NCBI RefSeq assembly: GCF_003346815.1
Contig: NZ_CP031217.1
Location: 372,001-436,000, forward strand
Origin: Halarcobacter bivalviorum
GTDB taxonomy: Bacteria; Campylobacterota; Campylobacteria; Campylobacterales; Arcobacteraceae
Length of the DNA stretch: 64,000 nucleotides
Reading direction: 5' to 3'
Below the pieces are notes generated by a model. It had not been told where the DNA came from. It did no database searches and saw only the letters and a program-made list of their open reading frames with translations. Positions within the stretch are counted from its first letter, which is position 1, and every line of letters starts with the position of its first letter. A program made the translations under genes and the position numbers. Shown here in pieces: positions 6,433-21,614 of this stretch.

Positions 6433-6720
6433 ATGCAGTACTTAGTAATCGCTTATGACAATGAAGGGGCCTTAGAAAAAAGACTTGCAGTTAGAGATGC
6501 TCATGTTGAGGGAGCAAAAAAATTAATGGCAGAAGGAAAGATTATCCAAGCAGGTGCTTTAATTGAAGAAGAACAAATGGTTGGTTCAACTTTATTTGTT
6601 GATTTTGAAGATGATGATGAAATCAATGAATGGTTATCAAATGAGCCATATGTACAAAATGGTGTTTGGAATATGGAAGAGTTCCAAATCGTTCCTGTTA
6701 AGTTACTTCCTAAAGATTAA
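6433..6720 (+). CDS. YciI-family protein, insertion site of the island
   Basis: Small (95-residue) cytosolic protein of the YciI/YCII superfamily, a dimeric ferredoxin-like fold with a conserved His/Asp pair. Visible are the start MQYLVIAYD and the RDAHVEGAKKLMAEG helix with the family histidine. A good Shine-Dalgarno (aaggaga) precedes the ATG. The substrate in this lineage is unknown. Its last 13 codons contain the left attachment site of the mobile island: the present end reads VKLLPKD, while the copy at the other end of the island encodes VKLLPKNS. So the current 3' end was supplied by the element, and the displaced native end lies near 21614. Confidence 0.85.
   Translation: MQYLVIAYDNEGALEKRLAVRDAHVEGAKKLMAEGKIIQAGALIEEEQMVGSTLFVDFEDDDEINEWLSNEPYVQNGVWNMEEFQIVPVKLLPKD
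6681..6714 (+). repeat. Left attachment site (attL) in the YciI-family gene
   Basis: Direct-repeat partner of 21581-21614. The first 18 bases (gttccaaatcgttcctgt) are identical in both copies, followed by three substitutions and then 11 identical bases (tacttcctaaa). The three differences fall at synonymous codon positions of the host gene (gtt/gta, aag/aaa, tta/cta). Strand exchange most likely occurs within the 18-bp identical core. Confidence 0.85.
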
Positions 6721-6733
6721 TAAATAATCACAA

Positions 6734-6765
6734 AAACCCTATAAAATCGATACTTTGTAGGGTTT
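6734..6765 (+). terminator. Hairpin after the YciI-family gene
   Basis: An 8-bp perfect stem (aaacccta/tagggttt) with a 16-nt loop lies 13 bases after the stop codon. It ends in a short T run within the stem's right arm. It lies inside the island, so it is carried by the element and may insulate the integrase from host transcription. Confidence 0.5.
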
Positions 6766-6821
6766 AAAACTGCAAAACAATAACAATCAATTACAAACTT
6801 TTTAGAATAATTACAGTATTT

Positions 6822-6872
6822 TTACGGTATTATTGACGGTACTGAGAAACTTTTAGAAAGTGAGTACCGTAA
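6822..6872 (+). promoter_or_regulatory. acggta repeats upstream of the integrase (candidate arm sites)
   Basis: Two direct copies of acggta lie 12 bp apart in 6822-6843, and an inverted copy (taccgt) lies at 6865-6870, immediately before the integrase ATG. The 22-bp unit at 6822-6843 recurs at the other end of the island (21502-21523) with 19 of 22 identities. Position just inside both ends suggests binding sites for the integrase N-terminal arm domain or for an AlpA-type directionality factor. No strong Shine-Dalgarno precedes the integrase start. Confidence 0.5.
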
Positions 6873-6876
6873 TAAA

Positions 6877-8097
6877 ATGGCAAGAACCGTTAAACCCCTT
6901 AATGATACGCAACTTAAAAATGCTAAAGCTAAAGAAAAAGATTACAAACTAAGTGATGGTGAAGGTCTTTATTTTGTAGTTAAAAAGAATGGAACAAAAT
7001 CATGGAGATATGACTTCACTTATGGTGGAAAAAGAAAATCTATGTCTTTTGGTATTTATCCTACTGTATCTTTAAAAGATGCAAGAACAAAAAAAGATGA
7101 AGCTAAGTACTCATTAGCTAATAATGTAAATCCTATATCAATTAAAAAAGCTAAAAAGACATCTGAAACAATAACTTTAAGTGATGTAATAGAAGATTGG
7201 TTAGAGTTAAGAAAAAAGAGTAAATCAGAAGCTACTATTATTCAAAATAAAAGAATACTAAAAAATATCACTATATGGTTAGGTAATATAGCAATAAAAG
7301 ATATTAGAAGAATAGATATTATAAATGCTTTACAAAAGTATCAAGAAAAAGGTGTAATAGAATCTGCTCATAGATTACTAGCTTTAGTAAATAAAATATA
7401 TATGTATGCAGTTACAAATGAATATGTAGAGCATAATATCATTGCTGATATAGATAAAAAATCAATTCTTGTACCAAATAAAAAAGATGCACACCTTCCA
7501 GCACTTATAGAACCAGAAGATATTAAACAGTTGCTTATTGATATAAATTCAATAAGTGAAAAATACAGAAGTGATATAAGTACTATATTTATCTTTAAAC
7601 TACTTCCTTATATATTTGTTAGAAGTGAGAATATAAGATTAATGAGATGGAATGAATTAAATTTAGAAGAGGGCTATTGGGCTATACCAAAAGAGAAGAT
7701 GAAAATGAATATAGAGTTTGTTTGTCCTTTGCCTCATCAAGCTATTAAGCTTATAAAAGAAATAGAGCCTTATTCAAGACATAGAAGTGAATTTGTATTT
7801 CCATCACCTCAAAAAAGTGATAGAGGTGTATCAGGTGCAACTCTAAGTGATACATTAGTAAGACTTGGATATCAAAATAGACATACAGTACATGGCTTTA
7901 GAAGTATGTTTTCAACAATTGCACATAATCTTTATAAAGAGCATGGTTTTCATTCTGATATTATAGAGGCTTGTTTAGCTCATAAAGAAAGAAATAGAGT
8001 TAAAGCATCATATAATAGAGAATCGAAATTTAAATACTTTGAAGAGAAGAGGGAGCTTATTCAATGGTATGCTAATTGGTTGGATAGGTTAAAATAA
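6877..8097 (+). CDS. int: P4-type tyrosine integrase
   Basis: Site-specific recombinase of 406 residues that should integrate and excise the island. The N-terminal DUF4102-like arm-binding domain is plain (LSDGEGLYFVVKKNGTKSWR followed by FGIYPTVSLKDAR), then a SAM-like core-binding domain around residues 90-190, then the catalytic domain. Catalytic residues can be placed by eye: R249 in FVRSENIR, H339 and R342 in HGFR, H369 in LAHKE and the nucleophile Y379 in SYNRE. Full length, with no sign of decay. It lies 157 bp after the YciI-family stop, beside attL, as is usual for integrases of this type. Many relatives use tRNA genes; this one sits in a protein gene. Confidence 0.96.
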   Translation: MARTVKPLNDTQLKNAKAKEKDYKLSDGEGLYFVVKKNGTKSWRYDFTYGGKRKSMSFGIYPTVSLKDARTKKDEAKYSLANNVNPISIKKAKKTSETITLSDVIEDWLELRKKSKSEATIIQNKRILKNITIWLGNIAIKDIRRIDIINALQKYQEKGVIESAHRLLALVNKIYMYAVTNEYVEHNIIADIDKKSILVPNKKDAHLPALIEPEDIKQLLIDINSISEKYRSDISTIFIFKLLPYIFVRSENIRLMRWNELNLEEGYWAIPKEKMKMNIEFVCPLPHQAIKLIKEIEPYSRHRSEFVFPSPQKSDRGVSGATLSDTLVRLGYQNRHTVHGFRSMFSTIAHNLYKEHGFHSDIIEACLAHKERNRVKASYNRESKFKYFEEKRELIQWYANWLDRLK

Positions 8098-8184
8098 AGA
8101 AGTGTTAAAAGTCTCATATCAATCTGATAAAATATTAAAGATTGACACAGAACTTGAACACTATGAATTTAAAATACTAATGTA

Positions 8185-9282
8185 TTATTTTTCTTTAAAA
8201 GTTAAATATTGCTTGATTTTTTTATACTTCATATTAATTATGTATTGTGCCATATAAACATAATCAGGTTCTTCTTTATCATTTATTGGTAAAAGTATTT
8301 TTTCTCTTGATATTCTTTTATCGTTAATTTCTCTATTAAAATTATACTTTTCGGATAACCTACTTGTTAATGTAGAAATGAATAAATATATATATTCATT
8401 AAAGTTTTCATTTTTTAAATGTGTAATATGATCACTTGCCACAAACTCGTAAGAATGATAAAAACTTGCACCTACACTACCACTATTTGCCAAACTTAGA
8501 CAATCACTAAATATTCTAACTTTCTCTTCATTCTCTATATAGTTATCAACTCCATTATTAGCTCTAGAAGAAGACACATAAGGCTTCTTACCTTGTATCT
8601 GATTTGCTTTTGTAAGTCTTTTACCTCTTTGTATTTCTGTGAATATATCTGTTAAAAAAAACTCTTTCCAATTTTTTTCTTGTAAATTATCAATTTTTTT
8701 ATAGTTTAACTTTTTGAATACTTTTTGAATATACTGCTTATATTGTTCTTGTTTTTCAATTAAAATATTTTTACCATAAGTTTCCATATAGTTCCAGTCA
8801 AGATTTCCTTTATTGGTTATTGGTAACATTATTTTAGTTCTAAATAATCGTCCCAAGGTAGCACCATTCCCACCCCAATTAAACTTTTCCATTTGAACTT
8901 CTATTAAAGGTATTAAAAATAAAGCATTAAACTTATTAATCTTTTTATGTCTCAATACTTGAATATTTTGCCCTGTATAAAAACTATGTGGTTGGTAAAA
9001 AACTGTTTGAGTATCAAGTCCAATAGTTATAACATTACCTTCATCTAAATTGTATTTATCTAATTGATTTATTGTGATGAATTGATTAATACCATTATCA
9101 ATATTTGATCTTGTTATATAGGGTATATTGCTATTTTTTTCTTCAATATTTAATTTGTTTTTATCTATTCCACTTGAACTAGAAGTGATATCAAATAAGC
9201 CATTCTCTCCACCAATAAAAAATTCCTTCCATTGAATCTCATTTAATTTTACTATACTATTTTTTGTTGTTTTCTTTGTCAT
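8185..9282 (-). CDS. Specificity subunit of a BcgI-like restriction system
   Basis: DNA target-recognition subunit, 365 residues. Two similar halves can be seen, each starting with a WKEFF motif (IQWKEFFIGGENGLFDI and NWKEFFLTDIFTEIQRGKR) and each containing a polar loop (YITRSNIDNGINQ, PYVSSSRANNGVDNY). This is the layout of two target-recognition domains, as in type I S and BcgI B subunits. It lies directly after the RM gene. I chose the ATG at 9282, which has an upstream GGAG and overlaps the RM gene by 26 bp; an ATG ten codons further upstream is in frame but lacks a good site. The length suits the roughly 340-residue BcgI B subunit. Confidence 0.87.
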   Translation of the reverse strand: MTKKTTKNSIVKLNEIQWKEFFIGGENGLFDITSSSSGIDKNKLNIEEKNSNIPYITRSNIDNGINQFITINQLDKYNLDEGNVITIGLDTQTVFYQPHSFYTGQNIQVLRHKKINKFNALFLIPLIEVQMEKFNWGGNGATLGRLFRTKIMLPITNKGNLDWNYMETYGKNILIEKQEQYKQYIQKVFKKLNYKKIDNLQEKNWKEFFLTDIFTEIQRGKRLTKANQIQGKKPYVSSSRANNGVDNYIENEEKVRIFSDCLSLANSGSVGASFYHSYEFVASDHITHLKNENFNEYIYLFISTLTSRLSEKYNFNREINDKRISREKILLPINDKEEPDYVYMAQYIINMKYKKIKQYLTFKEK

Positions 9283-11182
9283 CTTCAACTCCAAATAAAT
9301 AATCTCTTTCATTCATTATCATAGAAAACTCAAAAGATAAATAATTTCCTACTACTTTTTCAAAATCTTCATTTGTTGGTATTTCATCATTGAAATAATA
9401 AAAACTATGAAGCCACTCATCCTCAGCTTCAATAGTAGTATTTACACAAAACTTAGTTTCTGCTTCAATTCTATCAAACCAAACATCTAATAAGTGTTGT
9501 TTTCTATCTTTTGCCTGTTCTGTTTCAATTAGTCCAATATGAGGACTTACTTTAAAACCATCTTCTTTATAATCAATAAACTTACTTATTTTATCTTTTG
9601 GATGTGGTGTCCCAGTTGTAAATACTGCAATACAAGGCATAGTTCCAACGCCATAAAAGGTATCTTTATTAAGTGTGATAACTCCCTCTAATGTATGCTT
9701 TTTCAAAATGTTTTCTTTTATTGATTGTTCTTCTTTAGTTTTACCAGTCATTGAAGATTGAGGGATAATAACTATTGCTCTACCATCTTCAACTAAACTA
9801 TCTAATAAGTGTTCTGTAAATGATATTTCATATAAATCTGGGTTTTGTTTTGAACCTTGAGAATAAGGTGGATTCATCATTCCTACGGTTGCTTCTGTTG
9901 ATAATTGTAATTTACTAGGTTCTTGTTTTAAAAAGTTTTCATTAATTAGATTACTTTTTCCATCCCCTCTTAAAATCATATTTGTTGTAGCAATGGTAAA
10001 CATATCAGCTCTTTGTTCTATTCCATGAAGTTGTTTTTGTCTGATACTTTTCTTAACATTTTCATTATCTGTTTGGATTAACATATGGTGCATTGCTGCA
10101 ATTAAAAAACCTGCTGTTCCTGCACACGGGTCTAAAACTATATCTTCTGTTTTAATATCTACTAATTCACAAAATAAATCTGTAATATGTTTAGGAGTTA
10201 ATACAATACCTAATGTTTGACCATCTCCACCAGAATAAGACATAAATTCACCATAAAATCTACCTATGTAATCCTCTGATGATTTAGAGTATTTAATACT
10301 TTTATAAATTTTTTTATTTAAAAATTCTGTATAGTGCTTTAAAGGTGTTTTGTTCAATGTATCATTGATTTCATTAAGTACTTGTTCACTTTTAAACATT
10401 CCAAATTGACTCAGTATTTTATCTCTTTTAACTTCTGGAGAAACTTTTGATCTTCTTAGGTTTGACTCAATTGCATGATAGATTTTATCTCCATCAGTAT
10501 TTATTTCATCCCCTGTTAAGTCCTCAATAGAAAAGTTTTTAAATTCTGTTTCTCTTAATGCTAATAATATTCCTGATACTATAATGGGTTTATGAATATC
10601 CTTTAAATTACCATAGTTTCTTAAGTCCTCATGCAGGTCACTAGCATCTTTTAAAATTTCTGACAACTCTTTTTCTTTATCAGTTTCTTCTTGTAGAACC
10701 TCTCTTACATAGTATTCATCAATATTATCTTTATTAAATGAAATAAGACTCTCAACCTCTGGTAGCTCCCTATAAAATTTAGTTTCATCTATAAATAGTG
10801 GGCTTATTTTGTGTTTCTTTTCATCTCCAGATATACCGAATGCAATAACTTTATTATAAGTTGTATTTTCAACTAAATGTTTTCCATAAAATAAAGCTCC
10901 ATTAACTGCATAGTCTTTAATATCTTTTACATTATCACTAATAACTTTATCTTTTAACTTAATATGTTTATCAACTGATGCTTTATTTTCTATAACTAAT
11001 ATAAAATCTTTTACAACACCAACATACTCAGGAAATCCAACTTTGCCAGTTCCACCTTTTGAAGCTGTTTTTAATGCTTCATCAATCTCTTTTATTGAAC
11101 TACCTTGGGGATCTAAATCTATATTAACTTCTTTTAATAATTCATATACCCATAAATCTGTTTTAACTTCTTTTTTTGCCAT
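9257..11182 (-). CDS. BcgI-like fused restriction endonuclease/adenine methyltransferase
   Basis: 641-residue bifunctional enzyme. The N-terminal part carries a PD-(D/E)xK-type nuclease motif (VKDFILVIENKA: D59, E65, K67). A helical linker follows, then an N6-adenine methyltransferase of the HsdM type with the AdoMet-binding motif LDPCAGTAGFL near residue 350 and the catalytic NPPY at 437-440. With the separate S gene next door this matches type IIB systems such as BcgI, whose A subunit is of nearly the same length, and explains why no hsdR is present. It would methylate the element's own sites and cut unmodified DNA on both sides of its target. GGGAG lies upstream of the ATG. Confidence 0.88.
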   Translation of the reverse strand: MAKKEVKTDLWVYELLKEVNIDLDPQGSSIKEIDEALKTASKGGTGKVGFPEYVGVVKDFILVIENKASVDKHIKLKDKVISDNVKDIKDYAVNGALFYGKHLVENTTYNKVIAFGISGDEKKHKISPLFIDETKFYRELPEVESLISFNKDNIDEYYVREVLQEETDKEKELSEILKDASDLHEDLRNYGNLKDIHKPIIVSGILLALRETEFKNFSIEDLTGDEINTDGDKIYHAIESNLRRSKVSPEVKRDKILSQFGMFKSEQVLNEINDTLNKTPLKHYTEFLNKKIYKSIKYSKSSEDYIGRFYGEFMSYSGGDGQTLGIVLTPKHITDLFCELVDIKTEDIVLDPCAGTAGFLIAAMHHMLIQTDNENVKKSIRQKQLHGIEQRADMFTIATTNMILRGDGKSNLINENFLKQEPSKLQLSTEATVGMMNPPYSQGSKQNPDLYEISFTEHLLDSLVEDGRAIVIIPQSSMTGKTKEEQSIKENILKKHTLEGVITLNKDTFYGVGTMPCIAVFTTGTPHPKDKISKFIDYKEDGFKVSPHIGLIETEQAKDRKQHLLDVWFDRIEAETKFCVNTTIEAEDEWLHSFYYFNDEIPTNEDFEKVVGNYLSFEFSMIMNERDYLFGVEDDKENNKK

Positions 11183-11298
11183 AAGTCTTAATATCTCCCA
11201 ACAATAATAATACTAGTATTTTTATTGTGGGTATTGTATCTAACTTATTATTCTACATCGTTTATATAATGTAAATAAACTTGTTATAAAATATTATA

Positions 11299-11730
11299 TT
11301 AATTAGGTTTTGATCTTTTTTTATTATCATTCTTTAATTTCATTAATTCTAATTTCAATTCTTCTAATGATAAATTTAGTTTTATTATTTTTTCATTTTG
11401 TTTTTTCTCTTTTATCGCATCATCTATAACAAATTTACTTTGTGCCATATATAATGGAAGTGTAAAAAGTATTAAAAAAGCACTTACCAATAATTTAACC
11501 CAAAAATTACTTTTTTCAAAAAAAGTTTGAAGGACTGTATATCCTAATAGTATCCCTGAGAAGAGAATAGTTAGGTAAAAATTATGATTAATATCATAGT
11601 CTTTATTCCCTGGATAAATTATAGTCCAAGTATCACTAGAAAAATATTTAGGGAGTTCATCTTTTAATATAAGTAAAATTATACACATTATTATAACTGG
11701 CAATATATTTTCAATTAATTTAATTTTCAT
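11299..11730 (-). CDS. Small membrane protein with C-terminal coiled coil, unknown
   Basis: I do not recognise this 143-residue protein. It has hydrophobic segments at about residues 7-23 (NILPVIIMCIILLILK), 51-68 and 76-95, followed by a charged helix from about residue 105 (KEKKQNEKIIKLNLSLEELK) that should form a coiled coil in the cytosol. It stands alone between the restriction system and the next minus-strand gene, 116 bp upstream of the RM gene start. It could be a membrane partner in defence, but nothing in the sequence proves that. Confidence 0.6.
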   Translation of the reverse strand: MKIKLIENILPVIIMCIILLILKDELPKYFSSDTWTIIYPGNKDYDINHNFYLTILFSGILLGYTVLQTFFEKSNFWVKLLVSAFLILFTLPLYMAQSKFVIDDAIKEKKQNEKIIKLNLSLEELKLELMKLKNDNKKRSKPN

Positions 11731-11759
11731 TTTATTAGTCCTTTTTTATTTTATGATTA

Positions 11760-12161
11760 TTATTTATATAAATAGCTATCAACTTCCATTTCATAGCCTC
11801 TATCACTTTTTTCTGTTAAATCAGATTCTTCAACTTCAATCTCATATCCATACTTGTCTAAATAACTAGTTTGTTCCAAGTACTTATCTGAAAATGCAAA
11901 TAAAGTAGGATCTTTAATCATTCGTTCTGATTCAGCTAATAAATCAACAAGTAAGTCAACTTTTTGATTAGGTTCTAATCTAATTAGCTCTTTAATATCA
12001 TCAAACTCTTCCATTGCTTCATCAAGAAACATTGCTAACCTAAATGGACATTTATATTTTTTTATTTCATTAATAAAATACTCATTTTCAGTCTCATAAT
12101 AGAATGTTGCACAATCTCCAACTGGCTCTACTGGTTTTCCTAATTTTAATTCAATAAGCAT
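11760..12161 (-). CDS. Small acidic cytosolic protein, unknown
   Basis: An unrecognised 133-residue acidic protein (MLIELKLGKPVEPVGD at its start). It contains a helical stretch with AMFLDEAMEEFDDIKELIRLE and an acidic, tyrosine-rich tail (YEMEVDSYLYK). I chose the ATG at 12161 because aaggaaa lies just upstream; the longer open frame reaching 12320 begins with a low-complexity hydrophobic stretch and would overlap the divergent gene on the other strand. It is divergent from the ribbon-helix-helix gene, separated by about 100 bp that must contain both promoters. Confidence 0.55.
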   Translation of the reverse strand: MLIELKLGKPVEPVGDCATFYYETENEYFINEIKKYKCPFRLAMFLDEAMEEFDDIKELIRLEPNQKVDLLVDLLAESERMIKDPTLFAFSDKYLEQTSYLDKYGYEIEVEESDLTEKSDRGYEMEVDSYLYK

Positions 12162-12259
12162 AGTTTTTCCTTTTAAATTTGAATATAAAAACTTTACAAT
12201 TGTATTTATTAAGTAGTGATTATATATAATATTATAAATAATCATTATTTGGAGAAAAA

Positions 12260-12553
12260 ATGGAAGATTTATCAACACAAAATATTGACAAAATATCCTA
12301 TAATATAGCCTCTTTATCAAAAGATATGTATGAGATAAAAAAGACTATTTTATCTAAAGAAAAAGAGAAAGAAAAAATATCTAAAAAAGATAAAAAAAGA
12401 AGAGAAAGTCTTAAAAAGGCACAAGCTAAGTTTAAAAATGTATCTACTAATCTTAGTGCTGAAGATTATGAAAAGTTTGAAAAAAGATCTATTGAATTAG
12501 GTATGAGTAAATCTGCTTACTTAAAAAAATTGATTATGGATGATTTATCATAG
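12260..12553 (+). CDS. Ribbon-helix-helix-like DNA-binding protein
   Basis: 97-residue lysine-rich protein. The N-terminal half is a charged coiled coil (SKEKEKEKISKKDKKRRES). The C-terminal half has the look of a ribbon-helix-helix fold: a short beta strand (NVSTNLS), then AEDYEKFEKRSIELGMSKSAYLKKLI. Such proteins act as antitoxins, transcription repressors or relaxosome accessory factors (MobC-like). On an element with a MobV relaxase the last role is plausible, but the gene is 6 kb from the relaxase. ggag precedes the ATG. No toxin-like partner is adjacent. Confidence 0.6.
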   Translation: MEDLSTQNIDKISYNIASLSKDMYEIKKTILSKEKEKEKISKKDKKRRESLKKAQAKFKNVSTNLSAEDYEKFEKRSIELGMSKSAYLKKLIMDDLS

Positions 12554-12691: not shown

Positions 12692-13114
12692 TTAACCTAG
12701 TTTGATTCCAATAGCAACTACTATCATTACTGCTATTATTGGAAAAGCTATTTTATTTATTTTGTTTATACTTTTATCATGACTGTAATCGTGAACTCCA
12801 CCATCAACTGTTTCAAATTTTCTTCCAAACTTTTTAACTATCTTTGACATTAAATTACCAATTATTAAAATAGATGTTGAAAAAGCTATGATATATACTA
12901 AAACTAAGTTATTATCATTGATAAGGTTCATCTCTTCAAAGAAACCCCCTACACCAATAGCTATTACTATTGCTAAAAATACTCCTACAAAAGAACCACC
13001 TAGTTTTTCTAAAGAGTTTTTTAGACTATCTTCAAGATTTTCTCCACATTGTGGGCAAGTTTTAGCATTTGTAGATACTACATTTTCACATTCGGGACAT
13101 TTAATTAATGCCAT
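12692..13114 (-). CDS. Zinc-ribbon membrane protein, unknown
   Basis: 140-residue protein with an N-terminal zinc ribbon (CPECENVVSTNAKTCPQCGE, four cysteines at about residues 6-24) followed by two hydrophobic stretches near 40-56 and 68-87 and a third at the C-terminus (IAFPIIAVMIVVAIGIKLG). The order zinc ribbon then transmembrane helices is common in small uncharacterised bacterial proteins. It overlaps the end of the upstream gene by 14 bp, so the two are co-translated. The function is unknown. Confidence 0.6.
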   Translation of the reverse strand: MALIKCPECENVVSTNAKTCPQCGENLEDSLKNSLEKLGGSFVGVFLAIVIAIGVGGFFEEMNLINDNNLVLVYIIAFSTSILIIGNLMSKIVKKFGRKFETVDGGVHDYSHDKSINKINKIAFPIIAVMIVVAIGIKLG

Positions 13115-13704: not shown

Positions 13705-13707
13705 AAT

Positions 13708-16700
13708 TTATATAACACTTTCTCTCAACATGTAACCTACTACTGAACCTTTTTCTATTAAAAAATTTAATACTATCAATACTTTACCCTTTAATATTTT
13801 GGTTGTTCTAATTCTGTCACGATTTCTATAAATATATCTTTTAATATAATGTTCAATGTAATATATAGTATTTGTTTCTAGTTTTTTATCAATATAATTT
13901 TTATTTGTATCTAAAATTGTAGATAGCCAATTTATTCCATCTTCTAAATAGGGAGTTCCTATGTCATTCAATAGTTTTGAGAATGAATATAAAGTAGATG
14001 GGCAATGACCAATGTTTTCAGAAATATCTCTAAAAAATCTTTTATTTTGTTCTTTAAATGAACGCCAGTCTTTAGCAGTTTCTTTCCATCTAATTTCAGC
14101 AAAGAGATAACTTTTTATTATTTTATCTACATAGCTGTATTCATCACCATCCTTACATATTTCAAATATTTTTTCTTTAAAACTATTCCAAATAAACCAA
14201 AAATTATCATATGTATTTAAATTATCTTCAGCATGAATAAATTCTTTTAATAAATCTGCTATATGTTCGGATTTATTGAATTTAACTATAAATGGGTCTA
14301 AGTATTTTTGTATCTCATTTTGAGGTAAATGTAATACAAAGTAAGCATATTTTTGCATGAAATCATGTTTGATAGTGTAGTCTATATTATCATCATTATT
14401 ACTTGAAAGTAAGGTATTTGCAAATTTTGAAACAATTGATAAAACTATTTCTTTATGATTTTTATCTTGTGTTTTACTTGGAATAAGCCTAAATACTGTT
14501 TTTAGGGAGAAGAAGTCTAATTTATTAAAGTCTAAGCTGTCAAACTCTATTTTATTTTCAATGATTTCTAGAAATATATCTTTATTTTCCTCATAGAGTC
14601 TTTCTAGACTATTACATTGATAGGAATAAACACCTTTATCATAATTTTCTTGCCTAATTTTTAGGATTAACTCATCATATAGAGGTTTTAGAAATATATA
14701 TCCAAATAATAAAGATTGAGCATCATCAAAATGTTTTTCCCATAAATCATTTATTGCTAACATTGGAAAAATATTAAAATTTTCATGTTCTAATATTCCA
14801 CCTACATGATCAGTTCTAAATAATCCTAGAAGTAAAATAAGTTTAATATCTTCTTTTTTATCAGCAAAACTATTAAATAAAATAGGCATTACTGAAAAAG
14901 CTTGTTGAACACCATCTGAGATTTGATATTGATAACTTGGATTAAGTGAAAAAGTCGCTATTTCTAGTATGATTTTTTTACAAAATTCTTTTGTATCCGT
15001 ATCTAAATCTTGAAAGTAATCTCTTATTAATACAGAACAAACAAAAATAGGAGTAGACCTATTAAATAATATAAAATTATTTTCATCATCATCTACATTT
15101 TTATTTAATTTATTAATTATTTTTTGTACATCTTTAATTGCATTTTCGGGGTTTTTATTATATTGAGTATATTTCTCTGCTTTTTTATCATTTTTGAATT
15201 TATATTCAGCCCAAAGTTTTAATGGAGTATATATTAATGACTCACTATTTTTACTAATTGATGCTTCACTAAATTCTTTTAAATCTGATTCTAATTCGGG
15301 ATTAAAATTTATAATGGTACCTTCTTCAGTTTTTTCTACTGTTGGTGTCATTTTTCTTTTATCCATTCTTGCTAAGTAAATTCGCCAAGTTTTATTAGAT
15401 TCACTTTGTGTTGTCTCTTCTGATAATTTAGCATAATAATTATCCAAGATAGACCATAAATTTTCTTGTCTTTTATTTACTTCTTCATCAGATACATCTT
15501 TACTTTTAAAAAATTGATAATTTAAAAAAAGATTTTCTAAAGTAGAATTGCGATGTTTGTCTTTGCAAGTACTTATTCTTTCTTCATCGAAAAAACTATT
15601 ATGGTTTGAACCCCAACTTTTACCAATTGAATATAATGATTCCGCACCTTGGTCTGAAATTAATCTTGCAGTATCTTGTATAAAAAATTCTCTTGTTTTA
15701 AATAATATTTGAGCAACATTAAATGTTTTATCAGGATAAGCTAAAACTATACTTGAAACTACAGAAGAAATTGAAGCTGATTTTGAATGTTTTAAAAGGT
15801 AAATTAACCAACTCTCAAGAGTTTCACTTTCAATATCTTTTCCAATTTCCAAAAAGTATTTTTCTAAAGCCATATGAATAGATTGAAGTAAATATGGACT
15901 TATAGGAGAACTTGTACCCCTATACATATTCCAAAGACAATGACTTATATATTGCTCTTGGTTAGTATTTTTATCTATTGATACATTAACTACCTTAACT
16001 GAGTGGTCAAACTTAGAAATAACATATTTTTCTATTGATTTATTAGTAAACTCTAAAATAAAATTAATAGTTTCTTTAGGATTAGATTGTAATAACCAGT
16101 AAATAGGTGTTTGATAAGCACTAGCAGGATGATAATCTGAATGATTGCTTTCTAATCCAAAGTGTTGCTCAACTTCTATCCTTGAACGATATAATCTATC
16201 GTCTTTTTTGGGAGTATATGTCCAAAATAAATTGGCTAATTCTAAAATATGTTTTGGCAGATTTTTAACAATCGGAATAGCTTCAATTTTTGTCAGAACA
16301 AACTTTATTAAATCATTATATGGTTCTCCATGATTCTTCCATTTATTTTCTAAAATTTCATTGAAAATATTTTCTAATTCATATTTTATTTCTGATGAAC
16401 CATTTATTATAGCTTGAAAAAGTTCTTTTTTTGAATCATCTCTAGACCAATAAACATCTTCTTCAATAGTCCACTGATAAAATTGTAAAGCAATTAAACT
16501 GGAACATTTTGTAGTTTCTCCATTATTATTTTTATTATTCCAGTCATGTATTACAGGCAGAATAAAATTTATATTTTTTATTCCTATTTCTTCTAAATTG
16601 TCAAAAACAAATTTAATAAGATAACTCCAACCTTCTCCTTTTGGTTTTGTTAGTACATATTTTAAAGAGAATATATTTAGACTTTTAATTCCCATTTGTA

Positions 16701-18414
16701 AAAATAAATCATTATCAAGTTCTTTGCATGTCATTCTTAATATAAAAGTAATACGTTTTAATAGTTTTTGTTCATTTTCTAATAATTCATCTTTGAAAAG
16801 TTCAAAGAAAACTTTTGAATAATCTGATAGTAAAACAGAAACCAATAATTCATCTTTCCAAAATTGTTCAATTTGCTTATTTGTAATAATTTCATCAATA
16901 AATGTTTTAATAGTCTCATCTTGAAGAAGTAATTTTTCAGATATCCAATTTCTAAAGCTTCTACGAATTGGTAGTGATTGTCCAATTTTTTTTAAAAAAT
17001 CCAATTCATTGGATCTTCTTATATATTCTACTTCAATTATTTCTTCAAGTGCCCATTCTTCATAAATATCATGAGTTATAAAATATCCAGCTTTCTCATA
17101 TCCTAATATACCATCTTCCACTAATTCATGTAAAATAGTTGATTCACAATCAGAAATAATAAAAAATTGCCCACTATTTGCTCTTTCATATGCGATATTG
17201 AAAAAACATCTTTCTCTTTCAGGTTTAGATTTTTTTATTATTTTATTCCATAGTTCATTTTTGAAATCATTATAATTTAACTTATTAGCTTCATTGTAAT
17301 ATTTTAAATATTTATTTAAATAAAATGGATTTTTTATTAGTGTTAATAGTTTCTCATCAGTGGGCAATGTAAAAGAATATTTTTCAGATAATTCATTTAA
17401 TTCTTTTTGTTTTAAAATATTAATATTAATATTTAAAGGTGCTATATTATAAATTTCAGATAAATCTGTATATAAATTTTCTAAATAATGATTTCTTGTA
17501 GTGAATATAATTTGCCATTTATTTCTTATTAATATTGCTAAGAATTCTTTAAAAGGGTCTGTGTTTTTTAAGTCTAAAAGTTTTTCAGCAGAGTCTATTA
17601 CAATAATTTTATTTTTTTGTTCTTTTGTCGCTTCAGAAAATTCATAAAAAGTAAAGTCTTTAAACAAATCATTTATATGTCTTAGTTCAAACTCCGTAGC
17701 CTTAAATACAAAAAAAGAAGATACTTCTTTAAAGTGTTCGTATAATTTTTTTATAATTACTGTTTTTCCCACTCCTCCAATACCTGTTAAAATTGAAACT
17801 TTTTGAGATAGTGCCTTTAATTTTTCTATACAATATTCTCTATTTATTTCAATATCTTGATTTTTAAAAGTAATTTTTGTATGGATTTCATTTAGAATAT
17901 TTTCAGTATGTTGTTTTTGTTCTTCTAATAAATTAAAGATACTTTTTTCCTGTACAAAAAAATGCTTTGCAAAAATTTGATTATTGCTTGATACAAATTC
18001 AGATTCAAAAAAACTAGCTGTTTTCCATTCTAATGTTATATTTAATTCTTTGGCTTTATTTTCAACTTCAATTAAACCTTTAGGCTTTTTACCTTTATTT
18101 TGTCCCCATTCTTGATTTGTATAAAAATATAATTTAGTAATATTTGAGTAATATTTTTTTGACTTTTCAATAGTAGATAATATTTCTTCTTTATGGTCAG
18201 ATAATGAAGTTTCATAAAATTTTGCTTGCCATCCTATTATCTCATCTTTAACATTTATAGGGTCAGTTTCTATAGCTGCTTGATTTATATAACGAAAAAT
18301 TCCAAACTCTCTGTTAAACTCTTTACAAAATAGTAAATAACAAAACCATTCAAAATTATATTGAGGGTTTTCACTAAACTTTGCTTTAAAAATATTCCAG
18401 TTTGGTTTAATCAT
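13708..18414 (-). CDS. Avs-like STAND NTPase with Mrr-like nuclease domain
   Basis: A 1568-residue candidate anti-phage sensor. Domain order: an N-terminal Mrr/Cap4-like PD-(D/E)xK nuclease, with E49, D51 and the QxK motif in GWQAKFY (Q63, K65); a STAND-type P-loop ATPase with Walker A GIGGVGKT (211-218), Walker B IIVIDSAE (D274) and the TTRNH arginine motif (305-309); a winged-helix region ending in the HDIYEEWALEE motif; then more than 1000 residues of helical, repeat-like sequence that in Avs proteins binds a phage protein. This layout and length match the Avs4 type, which recognises phage portal protein, but the target here is unknown. The start at 18414 (MIKPNWNIFKAKFSENPQ) is preferred; the frame is open to 18465. 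Confidence 0.82.
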   Translation of the reverse strand: MIKPNWNIFKAKFSENPQYNFEWFCYLLFCKEFNREFGIFRYINQAAIETDPINVKDEIIGWQAKFYETSLSDHKEEILSTIEKSKKYYSNITKLYFYTNQEWGQNKGKKPKGLIEVENKAKELNITLEWKTASFFESEFVSSNNQIFAKHFFVQEKSIFNLLEEQKQHTENILNEIHTKITFKNQDIEINREYCIEKLKALSQKVSILTGIGGVGKTVIIKKLYEHFKEVSSFFVFKATEFELRHINDLFKDFTFYEFSEATKEQKNKIIVIDSAEKLLDLKNTDPFKEFLAILIRNKWQIIFTTRNHYLENLYTDLSEIYNIAPLNININILKQKELNELSEKYSFTLPTDEKLLTLIKNPFYLNKYLKYYNEANKLNYNDFKNELWNKIIKKSKPERERCFFNIAYERANSGQFFIISDCESTILHELVEDGILGYEKAGYFITHDIYEEWALEEIIEVEYIRRSNELDFLKKIGQSLPIRRSFRNWISEKLLLQDETIKTFIDEIITNKQIEQFWKDELLVSVLLSDYSKVFFELFKDELLENEQKLLKRITFILRMTCKELDNDLFLQMGIKSLNIFSLKYVLTKPKGEGWSYLIKFVFDNLEEIGIKNINFILPVIHDWNNKNNNGETTKCSSLIALQFYQWTIEEDVYWSRDDSKKELFQAIINGSSEIKYELENIFNEILENKWKNHGEPYNDLIKFVLTKIEAIPIVKNLPKHILELANLFWTYTPKKDDRLYRSRIEVEQHFGLESNHSDYHPASAYQTPIYWLLQSNPKETINFILEFTNKSIEKYVISKFDHSVKVVNVSIDKNTNQEQYISHCLWNMYRGTSSPISPYLLQSIHMALEKYFLEIGKDIESETLESWLIYLLKHSKSASISSVVSSIVLAYPDKTFNVAQILFKTREFFIQDTARLISDQGAESLYSIGKSWGSNHNSFFDEERISTCKDKHRNSTLENLFLNYQFFKSKDVSDEEVNKRQENLWSILDNYYAKLSEETTQSESNKTWRIYLARMDKRKMTPTVEKTEEGTIINFNPELESDLKEFSEASISKNSESLIYTPLKLWAEYKFKNDKKAEKYTQYNKNPENAIKDVQKIINKLNKNVDDDENNFILFNRSTPIFVCSVLIRDYFQDLDTDTKEFCKKIILEIATFSLNPSYQYQISDGVQQAFSVMPILFNSFADKKEDIKLILLLGLFRTDHVGGILEHENFNIFPMLAINDLWEKHFDDAQSLLFGYIFLKPLYDELILKIRQENYDKGVYSYQCNSLERLYEENKDIFLEIIENKIEFDSLDFNKLDFFSLKTVFRLIPSKTQDKNHKEIVLSIVSKFANTLLSSNNDDNIDYTIKHDFMQKYAYFVLHLPQNEIQKYLDPFIVKFNKSEHIADLLKEFIHAEDNLNTYDNFWFIWNSFKEKIFEICKDGDEYSYVDKIIKSYLFAEIRWKETAKDWRSFKEQNKRFFRDISENIGHCPSTLYSFSKLLNDIGTPYLEDGINWLSTILDTNKNYIDKKLETNTIYYIEHYIKRYIYRNRDRIRTTKILKGKVLIVLNFLIEKGSVVGYMLRESVI

Positions 18415-18522
18415 ATTGTATCTCTTTATCAAAAAATTTGTTTCATTATTATATCTAACTAACATAAACTAGAAAATAATTATATCTACAAAAGGTCTAT
18501 ATATTTTAAGAATTAAGATAAA

Positions 18523-20004
18523 TCACTTTAATTTATTATGATTTATCTTTCTCCCTTTATCTTCACTTCCAGTATATTTAGCAACCTTAGAAACTATGAC
18601 ATCTAAATCATCTTCACATTTAAGATATTTACTTATTTGAGTAAATGCTTCATCCATTCTTTTGTGTTCTTCTTGCATAATATCAAGGTTATGCAGTTTT
18701 ATTTTAAGGTCATTTACTTCATCTTTTAATTTTTTATTTATACCAAAGTATGCTTTTGATTGTTCAACTTTTACATTAAGTTCTTTGGTTAAAGTTTGTT
18801 CTTCTTGCAGTTGTTCTTGTAAGCTTCTATTTTCACCTATAAGCTTGGTATATCTTCTTTTGGTTACATAGTATGTATTTATATTGTTTTGTTGTTTTAA
18901 AAGTGTTTTATTCTCTTCTATGAGCTTTTTATTTTCAAGTAGTAAGTCTTTTGGGTGATTTTGTCCATTAATTGCATTTGCAAACTCATTATACTTTTTT
19001 AGGTGCTTAGCATAGAAGTTAAGATACTGTTTTAATTTATTTTTATCTACTTTTGTAAAACCTAGCTTAGCGGTAATACATTCATCTAATATTTTATCTG
19101 TATTATAAACCTTAGTTGGTTTTATATCTATGGTTGGTTTATCTTCTTTTATGGTATTGATTGTAGTTTCAAGTTCTTCTTTTTCTTTTGTAATTGATTC
19201 TAAGGTTAAACTTTCATTCTTAAGCTCTAATCTTGCTTTTTTAACTAAACTGTCAATACTATCAAGTTCACTTTTTAATTCTTTCTTATCTTCTACAGTT
19301 TTCTTTAGGTTCTTCTTTTGAGATTGAAGTTGTTTGATATGGTCTTGTATATCTTTTTTAAGTTGTTTAATCTCTTCTTCATGCATCTGTCTAACAGACA
19401 GATGTTTTGCAGTAGACTTTCTAACACCTCTTTCAAGTCCTATATCTTTAAAAGTAGATGCAACAATATCTTGAAACTCTGATAGTCTTCCACTTTTTCT
19501 TAGGTTATACCATACAGCTTCACCATTTTTTGTATGGTTATTAAAAGCAAAGTGCATATGAGGTGTCTTCTCATCATAATGAATTACATAATGAGATAAC
19601 TTAATGCTATCATCACCTAAGATAGTATGTATCTTATCTTGGATTAGTGGTACTGAATCTGTAAAAGATTTTTCTAGTTGCTCTTTGGTTACTTTACCTT
19701 GTTCTAGCCATTCGTTTATAATAGGACTTAGGGTAATGACTCCCGTTAGATGATCTGATTGTTTACTCTTTTGTAAGTTTCTATGATGTTTCTTTTTATA
19801 TAATTGATTATATTCATCAAAGCTTTTTTTAGCTTGTTGTTTTAATTGTTTTGGATCATACCCAAAATAGATATTATCAAACTTGTTGTGGTACATATTA
19901 TGTCTTAAGTAATTGGGTTTAGCAATTCTAAAGTCATGGTTTATACTTTGGATAGTTTTACTAGTAGTTGCAAAACGAACTTGTACTTTCTTTGTTTGAT
20001 TCAA
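18523..20004 (-). CDS. mob: MobV/Pre-family relaxase
   Basis: 493-residue mobilization protein that should nick oriT and lead DNA transfer in trans to a conjugation system. The relaxase core occupies roughly the first 210 residues, with the metal-binding histidines in IHYDEKTPHMHF (H142, H149, H151), as in plasmid Mob/Pre proteins, and the following GVRKSTAKHLSVRQ segment. The C-terminal half is a long coiled coil (for example KEKEELETTINTIKEDK), also typical of MobV. The protein appears intact. It points away from a 325-bp intergenic region with inverted repeats, the expected oriT position. It ends about 110 bp before the Avs-like start. Confidence 0.9.
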   Translation of the reverse strand: MNQTKKVQVRFATTSKTIQSINHDFRIAKPNYLRHNMYHNKFDNIYFGYDPKQLKQQAKKSFDEYNQLYKKKHHRNLQKSKQSDHLTGVITLSPIINEWLEQGKVTKEQLEKSFTDSVPLIQDKIHTILGDDSIKLSHYVIHYDEKTPHMHFAFNNHTKNGEAVWYNLRKSGRLSEFQDIVASTFKDIGLERGVRKSTAKHLSVRQMHEEEIKQLKKDIQDHIKQLQSQKKNLKKTVEDKKELKSELDSIDSLVKKARLELKNESLTLESITKEKEELETTINTIKEDKPTIDIKPTKVYNTDKILDECITAKLGFTKVDKNKLKQYLNFYAKHLKKYNEFANAINGQNHPKDLLLENKKLIEENKTLLKQQNNINTYYVTKRRYTKLIGENRSLQEQLQEEQTLTKELNVKVEQSKAYFGINKKLKDEVNDLKIKLHNLDIMQEEHKRMDEAFTQISKYLKCEDDLDVIVSKVAKYTGSEDKGRKINHNKLK

Positions 20005-20329
20005 AATACTTCTCCTTTAAGTATAGAATAATGGGGATTTTTAAGGGTGGCGACTGTACCCCTTGAACTTACAACCTAACACAAAGTGAGAGGTTAGTAA
20101 GTTGTATTTATGGTTTACCTAAATACATGGTACATAGGCACACAGTGCATACGTACTTCTTATGTTTTTAAATTAAATAGTTTAAAATATATTTGTACGT
20201 AAAATCAATAATTTTTTTGGCTGGCACGATTTTTTTATCTTATTTAATTTATTAATGTTTATCCAAAAACTATTAGATAAAAAAATGTGTGTACTGCGTA
20301 TCTTTTAGTTGTTTATACTTTAAAATTAA
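20005..20329 (-). other. Intergenic region with inverted repeats, candidate oriT
   Basis: A 325-bp stretch without a gene, directly upstream of the relaxase. It holds an inverted repeat at 20069-20100 (9-bp stem with a one-base bulge: ttacaacct ... aggttagtaa) and a second at 20130-20156 (gtac ends around gcac-aca-gtgc). The run gggtggcgactgtacccc lies beside the first. In MobV elements the nick site lies in such inverted repeats just before mob. The rest (20160-20329) is plain AT-rich sequence in which I see nothing. Confidence 0.5.
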
Positions 20330-20908
20330 CTAAGCAGTATCATGAGCAGTTGATTTGGTTGTTCTTGGTTTCTGTGTGTAAGCTCTTGACTTTTTCTTTT
20401 TTTCTTTTTCTACTTCATACATACACATCAAAGCGTCCCAATTAGTATAATCTAAATCTGATTCTGTCTCTTTCTCTCTATCTGGTTCTATCTCTACTGG
20501 ACTTTTTGGGACTCTTGTTGGACAATGTCCACTTTGTTTATTCTTAGAACGTTGATTTCTTTTTATTTCTGCCCATTTTGTCTCAGAACCTACCATATTT
20601 TGGGTTTCTATCATAAATAGTGTGCCATCATCCCATCTTTCCATTAATTTAAGTTCTATAAATAAATTAACTGCAACTTTTACTGTATCAATTGATGTAT
20701 CTGTTATCGTTGCTAGCATATCAGGGGAATATGGAATTGTATTTCTAAAAAAAAGTTCTCCTTCATTTTCTACACTTTTAAGTAAAAGTTTCAAGTAAAA
20801 TATGATGTAGTCTTTCCCATTTTGTTGATTTTCAATTATTTTGATTTCTTCTCTATCAAAAAAATCATTCTTTAGTTTTAACCAAAAAAACTTTTTATTG
20901 GTATTCAT
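20330..20908 (-). CDS. Phage replisome-organiser-like protein
   Basis: 192-residue protein. The first 120 residues (FFWLKLKNDFFDREEIKIIE, then GKDYIIFYLKLLLKSVENEG and ETKWAEIKRNQRSKN) match my memory of the N-terminal domain of phage replisome organisers (Phage_rep_org_N), a winged-helix origin-binding domain. The C-terminal part is short, basic and low in complexity, so the usual helicase-loading domain is absent or replaced. On a mobilizable element it may start replication of the excised circle. It is not part of an obvious operon: 421 bp separate its stop from the relaxase start and 137 bp separate it from the AlpA-like gene. Confidence 0.7.
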   Translation of the reverse strand: MNTNKKFFWLKLKNDFFDREEIKIIENQQNGKDYIIFYLKLLLKSVENEGELFFRNTIPYSPDMLATITDTSIDTVKVAVNLFIELKLMERWDDGTLFMIETQNMVGSETKWAEIKRNQRSKNKQSGHCPTRVPKSPVEIEPDREKETESDLDYTNWDALMCMYEVEKEKKKKSRAYTQKPRTTKSTAHDTA

Positions 20909-21008
20909 TATTTACCTTTAATATATGATTTAAAGTTAAATAATCATGTGCAATTTATAATATGTTATAATGCAAATGATTAAAACCTATCTTGGGATTT
21001 AATTAACG

Positions 21009-21043
21009 CTCTCTCTTTCACTCGCCAAAGTCTTAAGAGAGAG
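21009..21043 (-). terminator. Hairpin after the AlpA-like gene
   Basis: A 9-bp perfect inverted repeat (ctctctctt/aagagagag) with a 17-base loop lies just after the AlpA-like stop on the minus strand. No long T-tract follows, so it may be a weak terminator. Confidence 0.4.
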
Positions 21044-21045
21044 TT

Positions 21046-21246
21046 TTAAGAAACTCTATTATTTTGCATTTGTAAATTAATCCACTCTCTAATTTCTTTT
21101 TGTGAATATAACTTTGTTTTAGTATTTGCTAATCTAAAACTTTGCGGAAAAGTTTTATCTGTTTTTATATCTTCATAAAATTTTCTTGTTGATACATTTA
21201 GTAGATTACATACTTCTTTTATTTTAAGTAATTTGTCATTTTCCAT
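21046..21246 (-). CDS. AlpA-like excisionase/regulator
   Basis: 66-residue winged-helix protein of the AlpA/excisionase type: LLKIKEVCNLLNVSTRKFYE forms the helix-turn-helix and FPQSFRLANTKTKLYSQKEI the wing, ending in a short helix REWINLQMQ. In P4-like elements AlpA controls the integrase and acts as a directionality factor. Its position inside attR, at the end opposite the integrase, and the acggta repeats at both ends make this role likely here. Confidence 0.82.
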   Translation of the reverse strand: MENDKLLKIKEVCNLLNVSTRKFYEDIKTDKTFPQSFRLANTKTKLYSQKEIREWINLQMQNNRVS

Positions 21247-21580
21247 TTGATTATTTTCCTTTCTTTTTTTATATGTTCTGAAAATTTTAGTTTATTTTTT
21301 GAGAATTGTCGATAAAAAGTAAAAGTCCCTATAAATGGGCTTTTTATTAAGAAAATATATTGTTTTTTAGCGTTATGTTTTTATATATTTAATATTAATT
21401 TATATATAATAAAACAAAAGATTGATAAAAGACCTAACTTAATATAAATTGTTAGTTTTAAAAATTAATTTAATATTAATGATAAAAATCGATATAAAAT
21501 ATTACGGTATTTTTTGCGGTACTATAAATATATTATTTTGGATAAAGTAAATATTTTAGGGCTTAGCTTAGTATAATTTA
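21247..21580. other. Right-end intergenic region of the island
   Basis: No gene is seen between the AlpA-like start and attR. The stretch is very AT-rich. It contains an imperfect hairpin at 21324-21346 (aagtccc/gggctt with T runs on both strands), which could act as a bidirectional terminator, and the acggta repeat at 21502-21523. The promoter of the AlpA-like gene must lie here. Confidence 0.5.
21502..21523 (+). repeat. Right-end copy of the acggta repeat unit
   Basis: 22-bp unit matching 6822-6843 at 19 of 22 positions, again with two acggta-like boxes (acggta and gcggta) 12 bp apart. Lying 58 bp inside attR, it mirrors the left-end copy beside the integrase and is a candidate arm site for integrase or its directionality factor. 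Confidence 0.5.
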
Positions 21581-21614
21581 GTTCCAAATCGTTCCTGTAA
21601 AACTACTTCCTAAA
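21581..21614 (+). repeat. Right attachment site (attR)
   Basis: Second copy of the 34-bp direct repeat (31 identities with 6681-6714). Read in the YciI frame it encodes FQIVPVKLLPK followed by NS and a stop at 21621-21623, so it carries the displaced native end of the host gene. Host sequence resumes after it. Confidence 0.85.

What the first reader, a model, noticed from the sequence alone, without database searches (positions are those of the whole stretch)
6681..21614. Mobilizable defence island inserted in a YciI-family gene
A 15-kb element is bracketed by a 34-bp imperfect direct repeat that is the 3' end of a protein-coding gene, not a tRNA. The insertion rebuilds a full reading frame with a new stop. 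The element combines a P4-type integrase, an AlpA-like factor, a MobV relaxase, a replisome-organiser-like protein and two defence systems, so it is a rare architecture joining phage-like and plasmid-like parts.
Basis: partly seen in the sequence, partly recalled or inferred. Interest (0 to 1): 0.75.

Follow-up and report, generated by a model that had tools for sequence, protein, structure and literature searches.

The report
Mobilizable defence element in YciI gene
A 15-kb mobile DNA element carrying two anti-phage systems has inserted at the end of an ordinary bacterial gene and supplied that gene with a new ending; it belongs to a wider group of islands that use the same spot, and it is a good but not revolutionary example of a known kind of mobile element.

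Summary
A 35-nt direct repeat (32/35 identical) at 6680-6714 and 21580-21614 brackets a 14.9-kb element. The left copy is the 3' end of a YciI-family gene; the right copy is the displaced native end. A congener (G006) shows the empty site. In 104 family genomes, 19 integrases (this one included) are 62-100% identical; all 19 sit 143-165 nt behind the same gene and form one clade (100/99). None of 35 more distant integrases lies at that gene; most examined lie beside tmRNA. The element is best read as an integrative and mobilizable element (IME): P4-type integrase, AlpA, phage-type replisome organiser, MobV relaxase and a candidate oriT found here upstream of mobV. Three elements share the backbone but differ in cargo in two slots; here the cargo is a type IIG restriction system and Avs4. 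'Rare architecture' is not supported: IMEs with MobV, replisome organisers and restriction systems are published. The YciI site and its integrase clade were not found in the literature searches made. Excision and transfer are untested, and no VirD4-type coupling protein was found in this genome, so a helper must come from outside.

The parts
6433..6720 (+). YciI-family host gene, 3' end supplied by the element (target gene)
   Evidence: PF03795 E 3.3e-17; relatives in 73 of 104 family genomes
6680..6714 (.). left attachment-site copy (attL)
   Evidence: direct repeat D1; 32/35 identical to right copy
6877..8097 (+). P4-type tyrosine integrase
   Evidence: PF13356 E 6.9e-23, PF00589 E 3.2e-15
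8098..11759 (.). cargo slot 1, between the convergent 3' ends of int and the 186-aa gene
   Evidence: content between these two genes differs in G090 and G107 and is partly shared with G001
8185..9312 (-). specificity subunit of the restriction system
   Evidence: PF01420 E 4.2e-33; PADLOC Specificity_II E 1.2e-38
9257..11182 (-). type IIG restriction enzyme-methyltransferase
   Evidence: PADLOC REase_MTase_IIG E 8e-166; N6_Mtase
11299..11730 (-). 143-aa protein that travels with the restriction system; hydrophobic stretches visible in the sequence
   Evidence: 98% identical copy in sister element G001 beside the same system; no family over cut-off
11760..12320 (-). 186-aa backbone protein of unknown function (start codon uncertain; an internal start is likely)
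   Evidence: 91-92% identical in G001, G090, G107
12260..12553 (+). 97-aa backbone protein, weak VirD1/NikA-like match (possible relaxosome accessory factor)
   Evidence: PF07328 E 0.0019 and PF21983 E 0.008, both below cut-off; 88-93% identical in G001, G090, G107
12692..13114 (-). zinc-ribbon protein
   Evidence: PF13248 26.4 bits, just under its cut-off of 27
13101..13370 (-). 89-aa backbone protein, unknown
   Evidence: 91% and 62% identical in G001 and G090
13468..13704 (+). small HTH regulator
   Evidence: weak repressor-family match, phrog_3 E 0.0084; 92% and 86% identical in G001, G090
13713..18521 (.). cargo slot 2, between the convergent 3' ends of the HTH gene and mobV
   Evidence: backbone alignment stops at 13712 and resumes at 18523 (G001) and 18522 (G090)
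13708..18465 (-). Avs4 anti-phage STAND ATPase
   Evidence: PADLOC Avs4 2322 bits; solved Avs4 8dgf, 1739 bits over residues 18-1584
18523..20004 (-). MobV relaxase
   Evidence: PF01076 39.6 bits, cut-off 25.5; HxDExTPHxH stretch aligned with MobM 4lvi, E 0.04
20022..20110 (-). candidate origin of transfer: inverted repeat followed by a second short hairpin, just upstream of mobV
   Evidence: 98-99% conserved in two sister elements and found near MobV genes in four further genomes; hairpin z -3.76
20330..20908 (-). phage-type replisome organiser
   Evidence: PF09681 E 1.1e-27; phrog_5968 E 4.1e-51
21046..21246 (-). AlpA-like regulator / excisionase candidate
   Evidence: PF05930 22.6 bits, cut-off 21; phrog_66 E 5e-7
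21580..21614 (.). right attachment-site copy (attR), the displaced native 3' end of the YciI gene (its stop codon ends at 21623)
21770..23179 (+). next host gene (sodium:sulfate-type symporter), directly after YciI in the empty site of G006
   Evidence: PF00939

Best explanation
This is an integrative and mobilizable element (IME). Shown by comparison: it integrates at one chromosomal site, the 3' end of the YciI-family gene behind rpoC. It carries a copy of that gene end, so the host gene keeps its reading frame (new end ...PKD, old end ...PKNS), and the native end is left at the far side as attR. Inferred: the integrase recombines attP with attB; the AlpA-like protein acts as excisionase and/or activator of the leftward alpA-repO-mob genes; the replisome organiser loads the host replisome on the excised circle so that it is not lost; MobV nicks the oriT upstream of its gene, and one strand leaves through the conjugation pore of a helper element that was not found in this genome. 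Two intergenic slots between convergent backbone genes take up cargo; in this copy a type IIG restriction-modification system and Avs4, which would protect the host, and so the element, against phages.
For: Repeat and frame. 19 of 19 integrases of 62-100% identity, the window's included, lie 143-165 nt behind the YciI gene; they form one clade, 100/99, 1 change on the tree. A second copy of the gene tail at 26/32 or better in 14 of those 19 loci, and in 0 of 31 YciI loci without an integrase or remnant, the latter searched over shorter stretches. Empty site in G006. Integrase DNA 93-96% identical between hosts whose YciI and rpoC DNA is 77-86% and 87-88% identical: horizontal transfer. Shared backbone with different cargo in G000, G001, G090. 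MobV over its cut-off, with the residues expected of the catalytic motifs invariant in 4 of 4 aligned MobV proteins. oriT candidate: conserved with mobV in G090 although the neighbouring replication gene is replaced there, and present near 7 of the 8 MobV genes in the family that are more than terminal fragments, one of them (G010) broken; the six distinct sequences fold better than 296 or more of 300 shuffles each. Precedent for each part in IMEs (IMESag-rpsI).
Against: No excised circle, empty-site reads or transfer could be tested. No VirD4-type coupling protein (PF02534) was found in this genome, so no resident helper is visible. The MobV structure prediction failed (mean pLDDT 48.5) and the sequence match to solved MobM is weak (E 0.04). 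The oriT nick position is unknown; covariation in the hairpins is slight (1 pair with a change on both sides; 78 of 500 shuffles do as well), and the second hairpin alone does not stand out (z -0.31). Only 3 of 19 YciI-site genomes have MobV over the cut-off in the island, so mobilization by MobV is not a property of the whole site family.
Confidence: 0.87

Rival explanations
1. It is a phage satellite (PICI, P4 or PICMI-like): integrase, AlpA and a replication protein excise and amplify it when a helper phage infects, and it is packaged in the helper's particles; MobV is a passenger.
For: Integrase + AlpA + replication protein + defence cargo is also the make-up of PICMIs (passages of PMC10803314). 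The replisome organiser's relatives are mostly phage proteins: 328 phage records against 14 plasmid records.
Against: No Pfam hit at E 0.01 to terminase, capsid, packaging or primase families among the 13 main proteins of the element (small ORFs overlapping these were not scanned). The PICMI primase/fis definition is not met. mobV and its upstream segment are conserved together. The pattern scans of viral contigs, which find close relatives only, gave no relative of Int or MobV.
Confidence: 0.08
2. It is a decayed relic: once mobile, now fixed, with its genes kept only for defence.
For: The att copies differ at 3 of 35 positions, and no coupling protein of a helper was found. Some sister sites hold only remnants (G013, G015, G110).
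Against: Integrase, AlpA, RepO, MobV and both defence genes are uninterrupted open frames. Int, MobV, RepO, AlpA and the restriction enzyme have 86-97% identical counterparts in G001 or G090; the specificity subunit has only a 59% one and Avs4 none there. The att copies of sister islands also differ, 26-32 of 32, as expected when the attB sequence varies between hosts.
Confidence: 0.15
3. The repeat is a chance or duplicated gene end and the region is an ordinary stretch of accessory genes.
For: None beyond the low G+C of the region, which gives many weak repeats.
Against: 19 of 19 integrases at the same place, matching right-hand copies, empty site.
Confidence: 0.01

Closest known systems
IMESag-rpsI of Streptococcus agalactiae (PMC5090054, abstract and passages)
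   Same: Single chromosomal site at the 3' end of a protein gene (rpsI), MOBV relaxase with its oriT just upstream, own replication protein; excised circle detected there.
   Different: Different host phylum, about 9 kb, Rep_trans protein instead of a replisome organiser, toxin-antitoxin genes instead of restriction plus Avs4; here excision and transfer are untested.
Streptococcal IMEs and Tn6104 with replisome organisers (PMC5704250, passages)
   Same: IMEs that encode a phage-type replisome organiser.
   Different: Only the review's statement was seen; their sequences were not compared.
dusA-associated integrases and their islands (PMC4482086, abstract and passages)
   Same: A tyrosine-integrase family with one preferred protein-gene target and varied islands behind it.
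   Different: 5' end of dusA rather than 3' end of a YciI gene; different hosts.
Arcobacter butzleri islands ABGI1-3 (PMC2147049, passages)
   Same: Integrase-ended islands with short direct repeats; ABGI2 carries HsdS/HsdM-like genes and is not in a tRNA. Genome G062 has an island at the published ABGI1 coordinates beside tRNA-Leu, with a 51% identical integrase.
   Different: 'ycii' occurs 0 times in the main text; in the passages seen no mobilization module is described.
PICMI phage satellites (PMC10803314, abstract and passages)
   Same: Integrase, AlpA, replication protein, defence genes in a hot spot.
   Different: PICMIs have a defining primase and insertion beside fis; here there is MobV, an oriT candidate and no primase hit.

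Membership tests
Integrative and mobilizable element (IME) | integrated at an attachment site flanked by att copies | tested here: met
Integrative and mobilizable element (IME) | own recombinase | tested here: met
   full-length tyrosine integrase 6877-8097
Integrative and mobilizable element (IME) | own relaxase and/or oriT | tested here: met
   Mob_Pre over cut-off; the oriT is a candidate only
Integrative and mobilizable element (IME) | no complete conjugation (T4SS) machinery of its own | tested here: met
   no T4SS family among the 13 main proteins; no PF02534 in the genome
Integrative and mobilizable element (IME) | excises as a circle and is transferred with a helper | not testable with these tools
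   needs reads or a mating experiment
PICMI / PICI / P4-type phage satellite | integrase plus AlpA | tested here: met
PICMI / PICI / P4-type phage satellite | satellite primase or packaging/capsid-redirecting genes | tested here: not met
   no such Pfam family in the 13 main proteins, nor in the 10 scanned against PHROGs
MOBV relaxase | Mob_Pre domain with HxDExTPHxH metal-binding motif and an upstream catalytic residue | tested here: met
   HYDEKTPHxH and NHDFR invariant in 4 of 4 aligned proteins; the role of these residues is recalled knowledge
Avs4 | full-length match to the Avs4 family | tested here: met
   activity not tested
Type IIG restriction-modification | fused nuclease-methylase with specificity subunit | tested here: met
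   model matches; activity not tested

The most novel reading that the evidence does not exclude
A family of Arcobacteraceae islands whose integrase clade changed its target once, from the 3' ends of RNA genes (tmRNA/tRNA) to the 3' end of one protein gene, and which then diversified, among others, into mobilizable hybrids: a phage-type AlpA-RepO module that amplifies the excised circle feeds a MobV/oriT module of a so far undescribed oriT type, with two fixed slots in which defence and other cargo is exchanged like cassettes. The same element might also be packaged by phages, using two routes of spread.
Probability: 0.2. Interest if true: 0.6.

Novelty: new member of a known kind. Interest (0 to 1): 0.42.

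Why it matters
It defines a reusable attachment site and its dedicated integrase clade in the Arcobacteraceae, so that islands can be delimited to the base and their cargo compared. The shared backbone with different cargo gives a direct way to look for defence systems in these bacteria. The candidate oriT makes mobilization testable, and could be used to find elements that lack a relaxase. The clade pattern is a clean case for studying how an integrase changes from an RNA-gene target to a protein-gene target.

Tried and rejected
T-arm mimicry: I asked whether the YciI gene end resembles the tmRNA/tRNA ends used by related integrases, which would explain the change of target. It does not: in 9 of 9 comparisons 299 or more of 500 shuffles scored as high.

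Structure of MobV: AlphaFold with 4 sequences gave mean pLDDT 48.5; not used, no fold search made.

First pair map of the oriT hairpin was off by one column; the corrected map is, and its covariation signal is weak.

Link to plasmids: MobV found only 2 distant plasmid records; the region upstream of mobV found none; 850 plasmid records hold integrase relatives, all below 60% identity, the 8 listed at most 36.5%. No plasmid source identified.

Viral contigs: no relative of MobV or Int by the pattern scan, which finds close relatives only.

Promoter and terminator scans were at chance level (108 found against 112.9 expected; 4 against 2.7) and are not used.

IS involvement in cargo exchange: G001 slot 1 and G004 carry IS256-type transposase-like genes (my reading of the sequence, no family search) with similar left ends; a search for clear terminal inverted repeats in G001 failed, best 15/24. 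Kept only as a lead.

One tree label was too generous: I counted L030 as 'tmRNA', but the tmRNA of L030 lies 6.5 kb upstream of the integrase in question, next to another integrase. The YciI clade and its support do not depend on that label.
Full report
1. What is there. The window lies at 372001-436000 of a 2,684,688-base single-contig genome. Two genus-mates have contigs with the same lengths as public records titled Arcobacter sp. BM102 (G001) and Halarcobacter sp. (G013), so the host is an Arcobacteraceae bacterium, probably of the genus GTDB calls Halarcobacter (inference). A 35-nt direct repeat, 32/35 identical, lies at 6680-6714 and 21580-21614. The left copy is the end of a YciI-family gene. 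An 81-nt query from the left end finds only these two places in the whole genome. No tRNA or tmRNA was found in the window.

2. Which end is native. In G006, a congener, the YciI gene is followed directly by the symporter and the gene after it. In the window those two genes lie behind the right-hand copy. The right-hand copy therefore is the displaced native end, and the left-hand end came with the element. In G004 the right copy and the sequence behind it resemble the G006 empty site (alignment). Window, G001 and G107, with 97% identical integrases, share the sequence behind the left copy although their YciI genes differ.

3. The site is a dedicated hot spot. Among 104 family genomes searched at E 1e-60 there are 55 integrase matches. 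Nineteen are 62-100% identical and intact (the window's own included); all 19 lie 143-165 nt behind the YciI gene. A twentieth, a decayed 73% copy in G060, lies behind a second tail repeat of the same site. The other 35 are at 51% identity or less; by position none of them is at its genome's YciI gene. I examined the surroundings of 15 of the 35. In the 11 loci L085-L095, 9 have a tmRNA and 1 a tRNA-Leu just upstream and 1 has no RNA gene in the stretch held. In one search, G004 contig 5 and G065 are beside tmRNA, while the stretches of G033 and G069 showed no RNA gene. Of the named loci, L031, L032 and L033 have a tmRNA just upstream (L031 and L032 carry the same integrase sequences as L092 and L093), L034 and L035 have tRNA genes upstream, and L030 has its tmRNA 6.5 kb upstream, next to another integrase. 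On a tree of 40 integrases the 19 YciI-site enzymes are one clade with support 100/99, one change of label; the neighbouring clade of four targets tmRNA (3) and tRNA-Leu (1). The 19 genomes belong to five genera.

4. The second repeat as a test. Using each locus's own 32-nt gene tail, a second copy at 26/32 or better lies downstream in 14 of 19 integrase loci, the nearest such copy at 12.8-28.4 kb (G060 has two). G027 has one with a one-base deletion, G082 a partial one (22/32); G107 and G067 end at a contig end after about 18 kb, and G109 has none in 59.9 kb. As control I took 35 other YciI loci (so 54 of the 73 YciI genomes in all). Four of the 35 hold integrase remnants (G013, G015, G063, G110; G110 has a 26/32 repeat). 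Of the 31 without an integrase none reached 23/32; G074 had two matches at 22/32 that do not look like the gene tail. The control stretches were at most 20 kb, five of them under 14 kb, whereas the integrase loci were followed to as much as 60 kb; within 20 kb the integrase count is 5 of 19 (plus G027). Background matches in the integrase loci did not exceed 22/32.

5. Horizontal transfer. Integrase DNA is 93-96% identical between the window and G001, G107, G004 and G090, whereas the YciI gene (element-borne end left out) is 77-86% and rpoC (full length, or the 279 and 543 nt held for G004 and G090) 87-88% identical.

6. Backbone and slots. G000 (window), G001 and G090 share int - [slot 1] - 186-aa gene / 97-aa gene - zinc-ribbon / 89-aa / HTH - [slot 2] - mobV - replication gene - alpA. 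G107 has a truncated version with only the last part of mobV. Slot 1 lies between the 3' ends of int and the 186-aa gene, slot 2 between the 3' ends of the HTH gene and mobV; both pairs are convergent, so cargo entering there breaks no backbone gene. Slot 2 holds Avs4 in the window, a membrane transporter (PF03547) with a gene that looks LysR-like by eye in G001, and 5.9 kb of other genes in G090, among them an amidohydrolase and a DUF1826 protein; the backbone alignment breaks at 13712 and resumes at 18522/18523 in both. Slot 1 holds the restriction system in the window, a transposase-like gene, an ArsP permease (PF03773) and the same restriction system in G001, a 286-aa ORF in G090 and a 983-aa ORF in G107. 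PADLOC found nothing for the G090 286-aa protein and the three G107 proteins scanned, but found SoFic, type II methylase and a weak type IV match in G027 and IetA in G014, which carry other islands at this site. In G090 the replisome organiser is replaced by a Lin1244_N protein. In G027 a window-type remnant stands in tandem behind another island.

7. Defence genes. Avs4 matches the family model over its length and solved Avs4 8dgf (1739 bits). Avs4 occurs in 8 of 104 family genomes (E 1e-50). No other copy is seen at a YciI gene, although in the fragmented genomes G075 and G079 the YciI contig ends within 4 kb. The restriction enzyme is PADLOC type IIG. Motifs read directly from the sequence (recalled meanings): NPPY and a D...ExK stretch in the restriction enzyme, a P-loop and a GWQAKF stretch in Avs4, HGFR and a late tyrosine in the integrase.

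8. Mobilization. MobV passes its Pfam cut-off in the islands of the window, G001 and G090 (3 of 19 YciI-site genomes; G004 has a sub-threshold match on another contig). In the family, 10 of 104 genomes have a MobV relative at E 1e-10 or better, two of them only as terminal fragments (G107, G027) and one broken (G010). The segment upstream of mobV (20022-20110) is 98-99% conserved in G001 and G090, although G090 has another replication gene behind it. It is found again beside MobV in G091 (85%; MobV 52% identical) and within about 400 nt of MobV genes in G004, G010 and G062, so near 7 of the 8 MobV genes that are more than terminal fragments; G093 lacks it. Two further short matches (G001 contig 3, G023) are not near a MobV gene. 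It can form an inverted-repeat hairpin followed by a short second hairpin. The six distinct sequences folded better than 296-300 of 300 shuffles; the first hairpin scored z -3.76, the second alone z -0.31. The pair count gives 94% paired cells against at most 66% for slid versions, but hardly any covariation. In pMV158 the MobM origin likewise is a set of inverted repeats upstream of mobM with a G/T nick (passages of PMC5863519). No nick site is claimed here.

9. Helper. PF02534 coupling proteins were found in 6 of 19 genomes (5 over the cut-off), not in this one. Other T4SS families were not searched. Transfer would need an incoming conjugative element; this is normal for an IME but also means that present-day mobility is unproven.

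10. Replication and regulation. PF09681 replisome organisers lie behind the YciI gene, inside the island, in 6 of 19 genomes (G000, G001, G027, G067, G071, G089); two further genomes have one elsewhere (against the places). The protein's relatives are mostly phage proteins (328 phage records; 14 plasmid records). alpA, repO and mobV all point leftward, so a common control by AlpA is plausible but not shown.

11. Literature. IMEs with MobV, replisome organisers, restriction systems and 3'-end protein-gene sites are described (passages), as is IMESag-rpsI. A single-target protein-gene integrase family is known for dusA. For the YciI site, the searches listed no paper with 'ycii' (0 occurrences in 15 of 15 and in 12 listed of 333; papers with all terms would be listed first). 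The library holds open-licence papers only.

12. Verdict. The element is a well-supported, possibly live IME with defence cargo. Its parts are of known kinds; the site, its integrase clade, the slot layout and the oriT candidate are what seems new.

Noticed in passing
L053 (G027), positions 12444-15930 read in the direction of YciI: Tandem array at the YciI site: behind an island with a 73% identical integrase stands the remnant of a window-type element (left end 94% identical, relative of the G107 983-aa ORF, last part of MobV, most of the integrase gone).
   Followed up: partly
G060:C1 around 2472000-2504800 (L098, L114): Two tail repeats at 27.0 and 32.6 kb and a decayed second integrase with 3 stops: a second tandem integration at the YciI site.
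   Followed up: partly
window 8787-9292 against G001 (L058): The restriction enzyme is 97% identical in G001 but its specificity subunit only 59%, with no DNA alignment over 8787-9292: a recognition domain appears to have been exchanged.
   Followed up: partly
L151 (G062), MobV at 16620-17027 about 2.5 kb behind YciI; oriT-like sequence at 16294-16310: A genome whose tRNA-Leu island coincides with the published ABGI1 coordinates of A. butzleri RM4018 has a distant MobV gene and an oriT-like sequence close to its YciI gene, beside a tRNA cluster; no integrase of this clade was found there.
   Followed up: partly
L171 (G091) 9247-11546: RepO-like gene, oriT-like sequence and MobV in the same order in another place without a match to this integrase in the 19.9 kb taken: the module seems to move as a unit.
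   Followed up: partly
window 8097-8133, L058 2040-2110, L046 9770-9850 (the last read in the direction of YciI): Similar short sequences (AGTGTTA...TCTGATAAAAT) stand at the slot-1 edge of the window and beside IS256-type transposase-like genes in G001 and G004; IS elements may help cargo to enter.
   Followed up: no
G004:C2 and G010:C1 (L170, L172): In these two genomes the oriT-like sequence lies behind the 3' end of a MobV gene and on the other strand, with a tRNA-Glu gene a few kb away.
   Followed up: no
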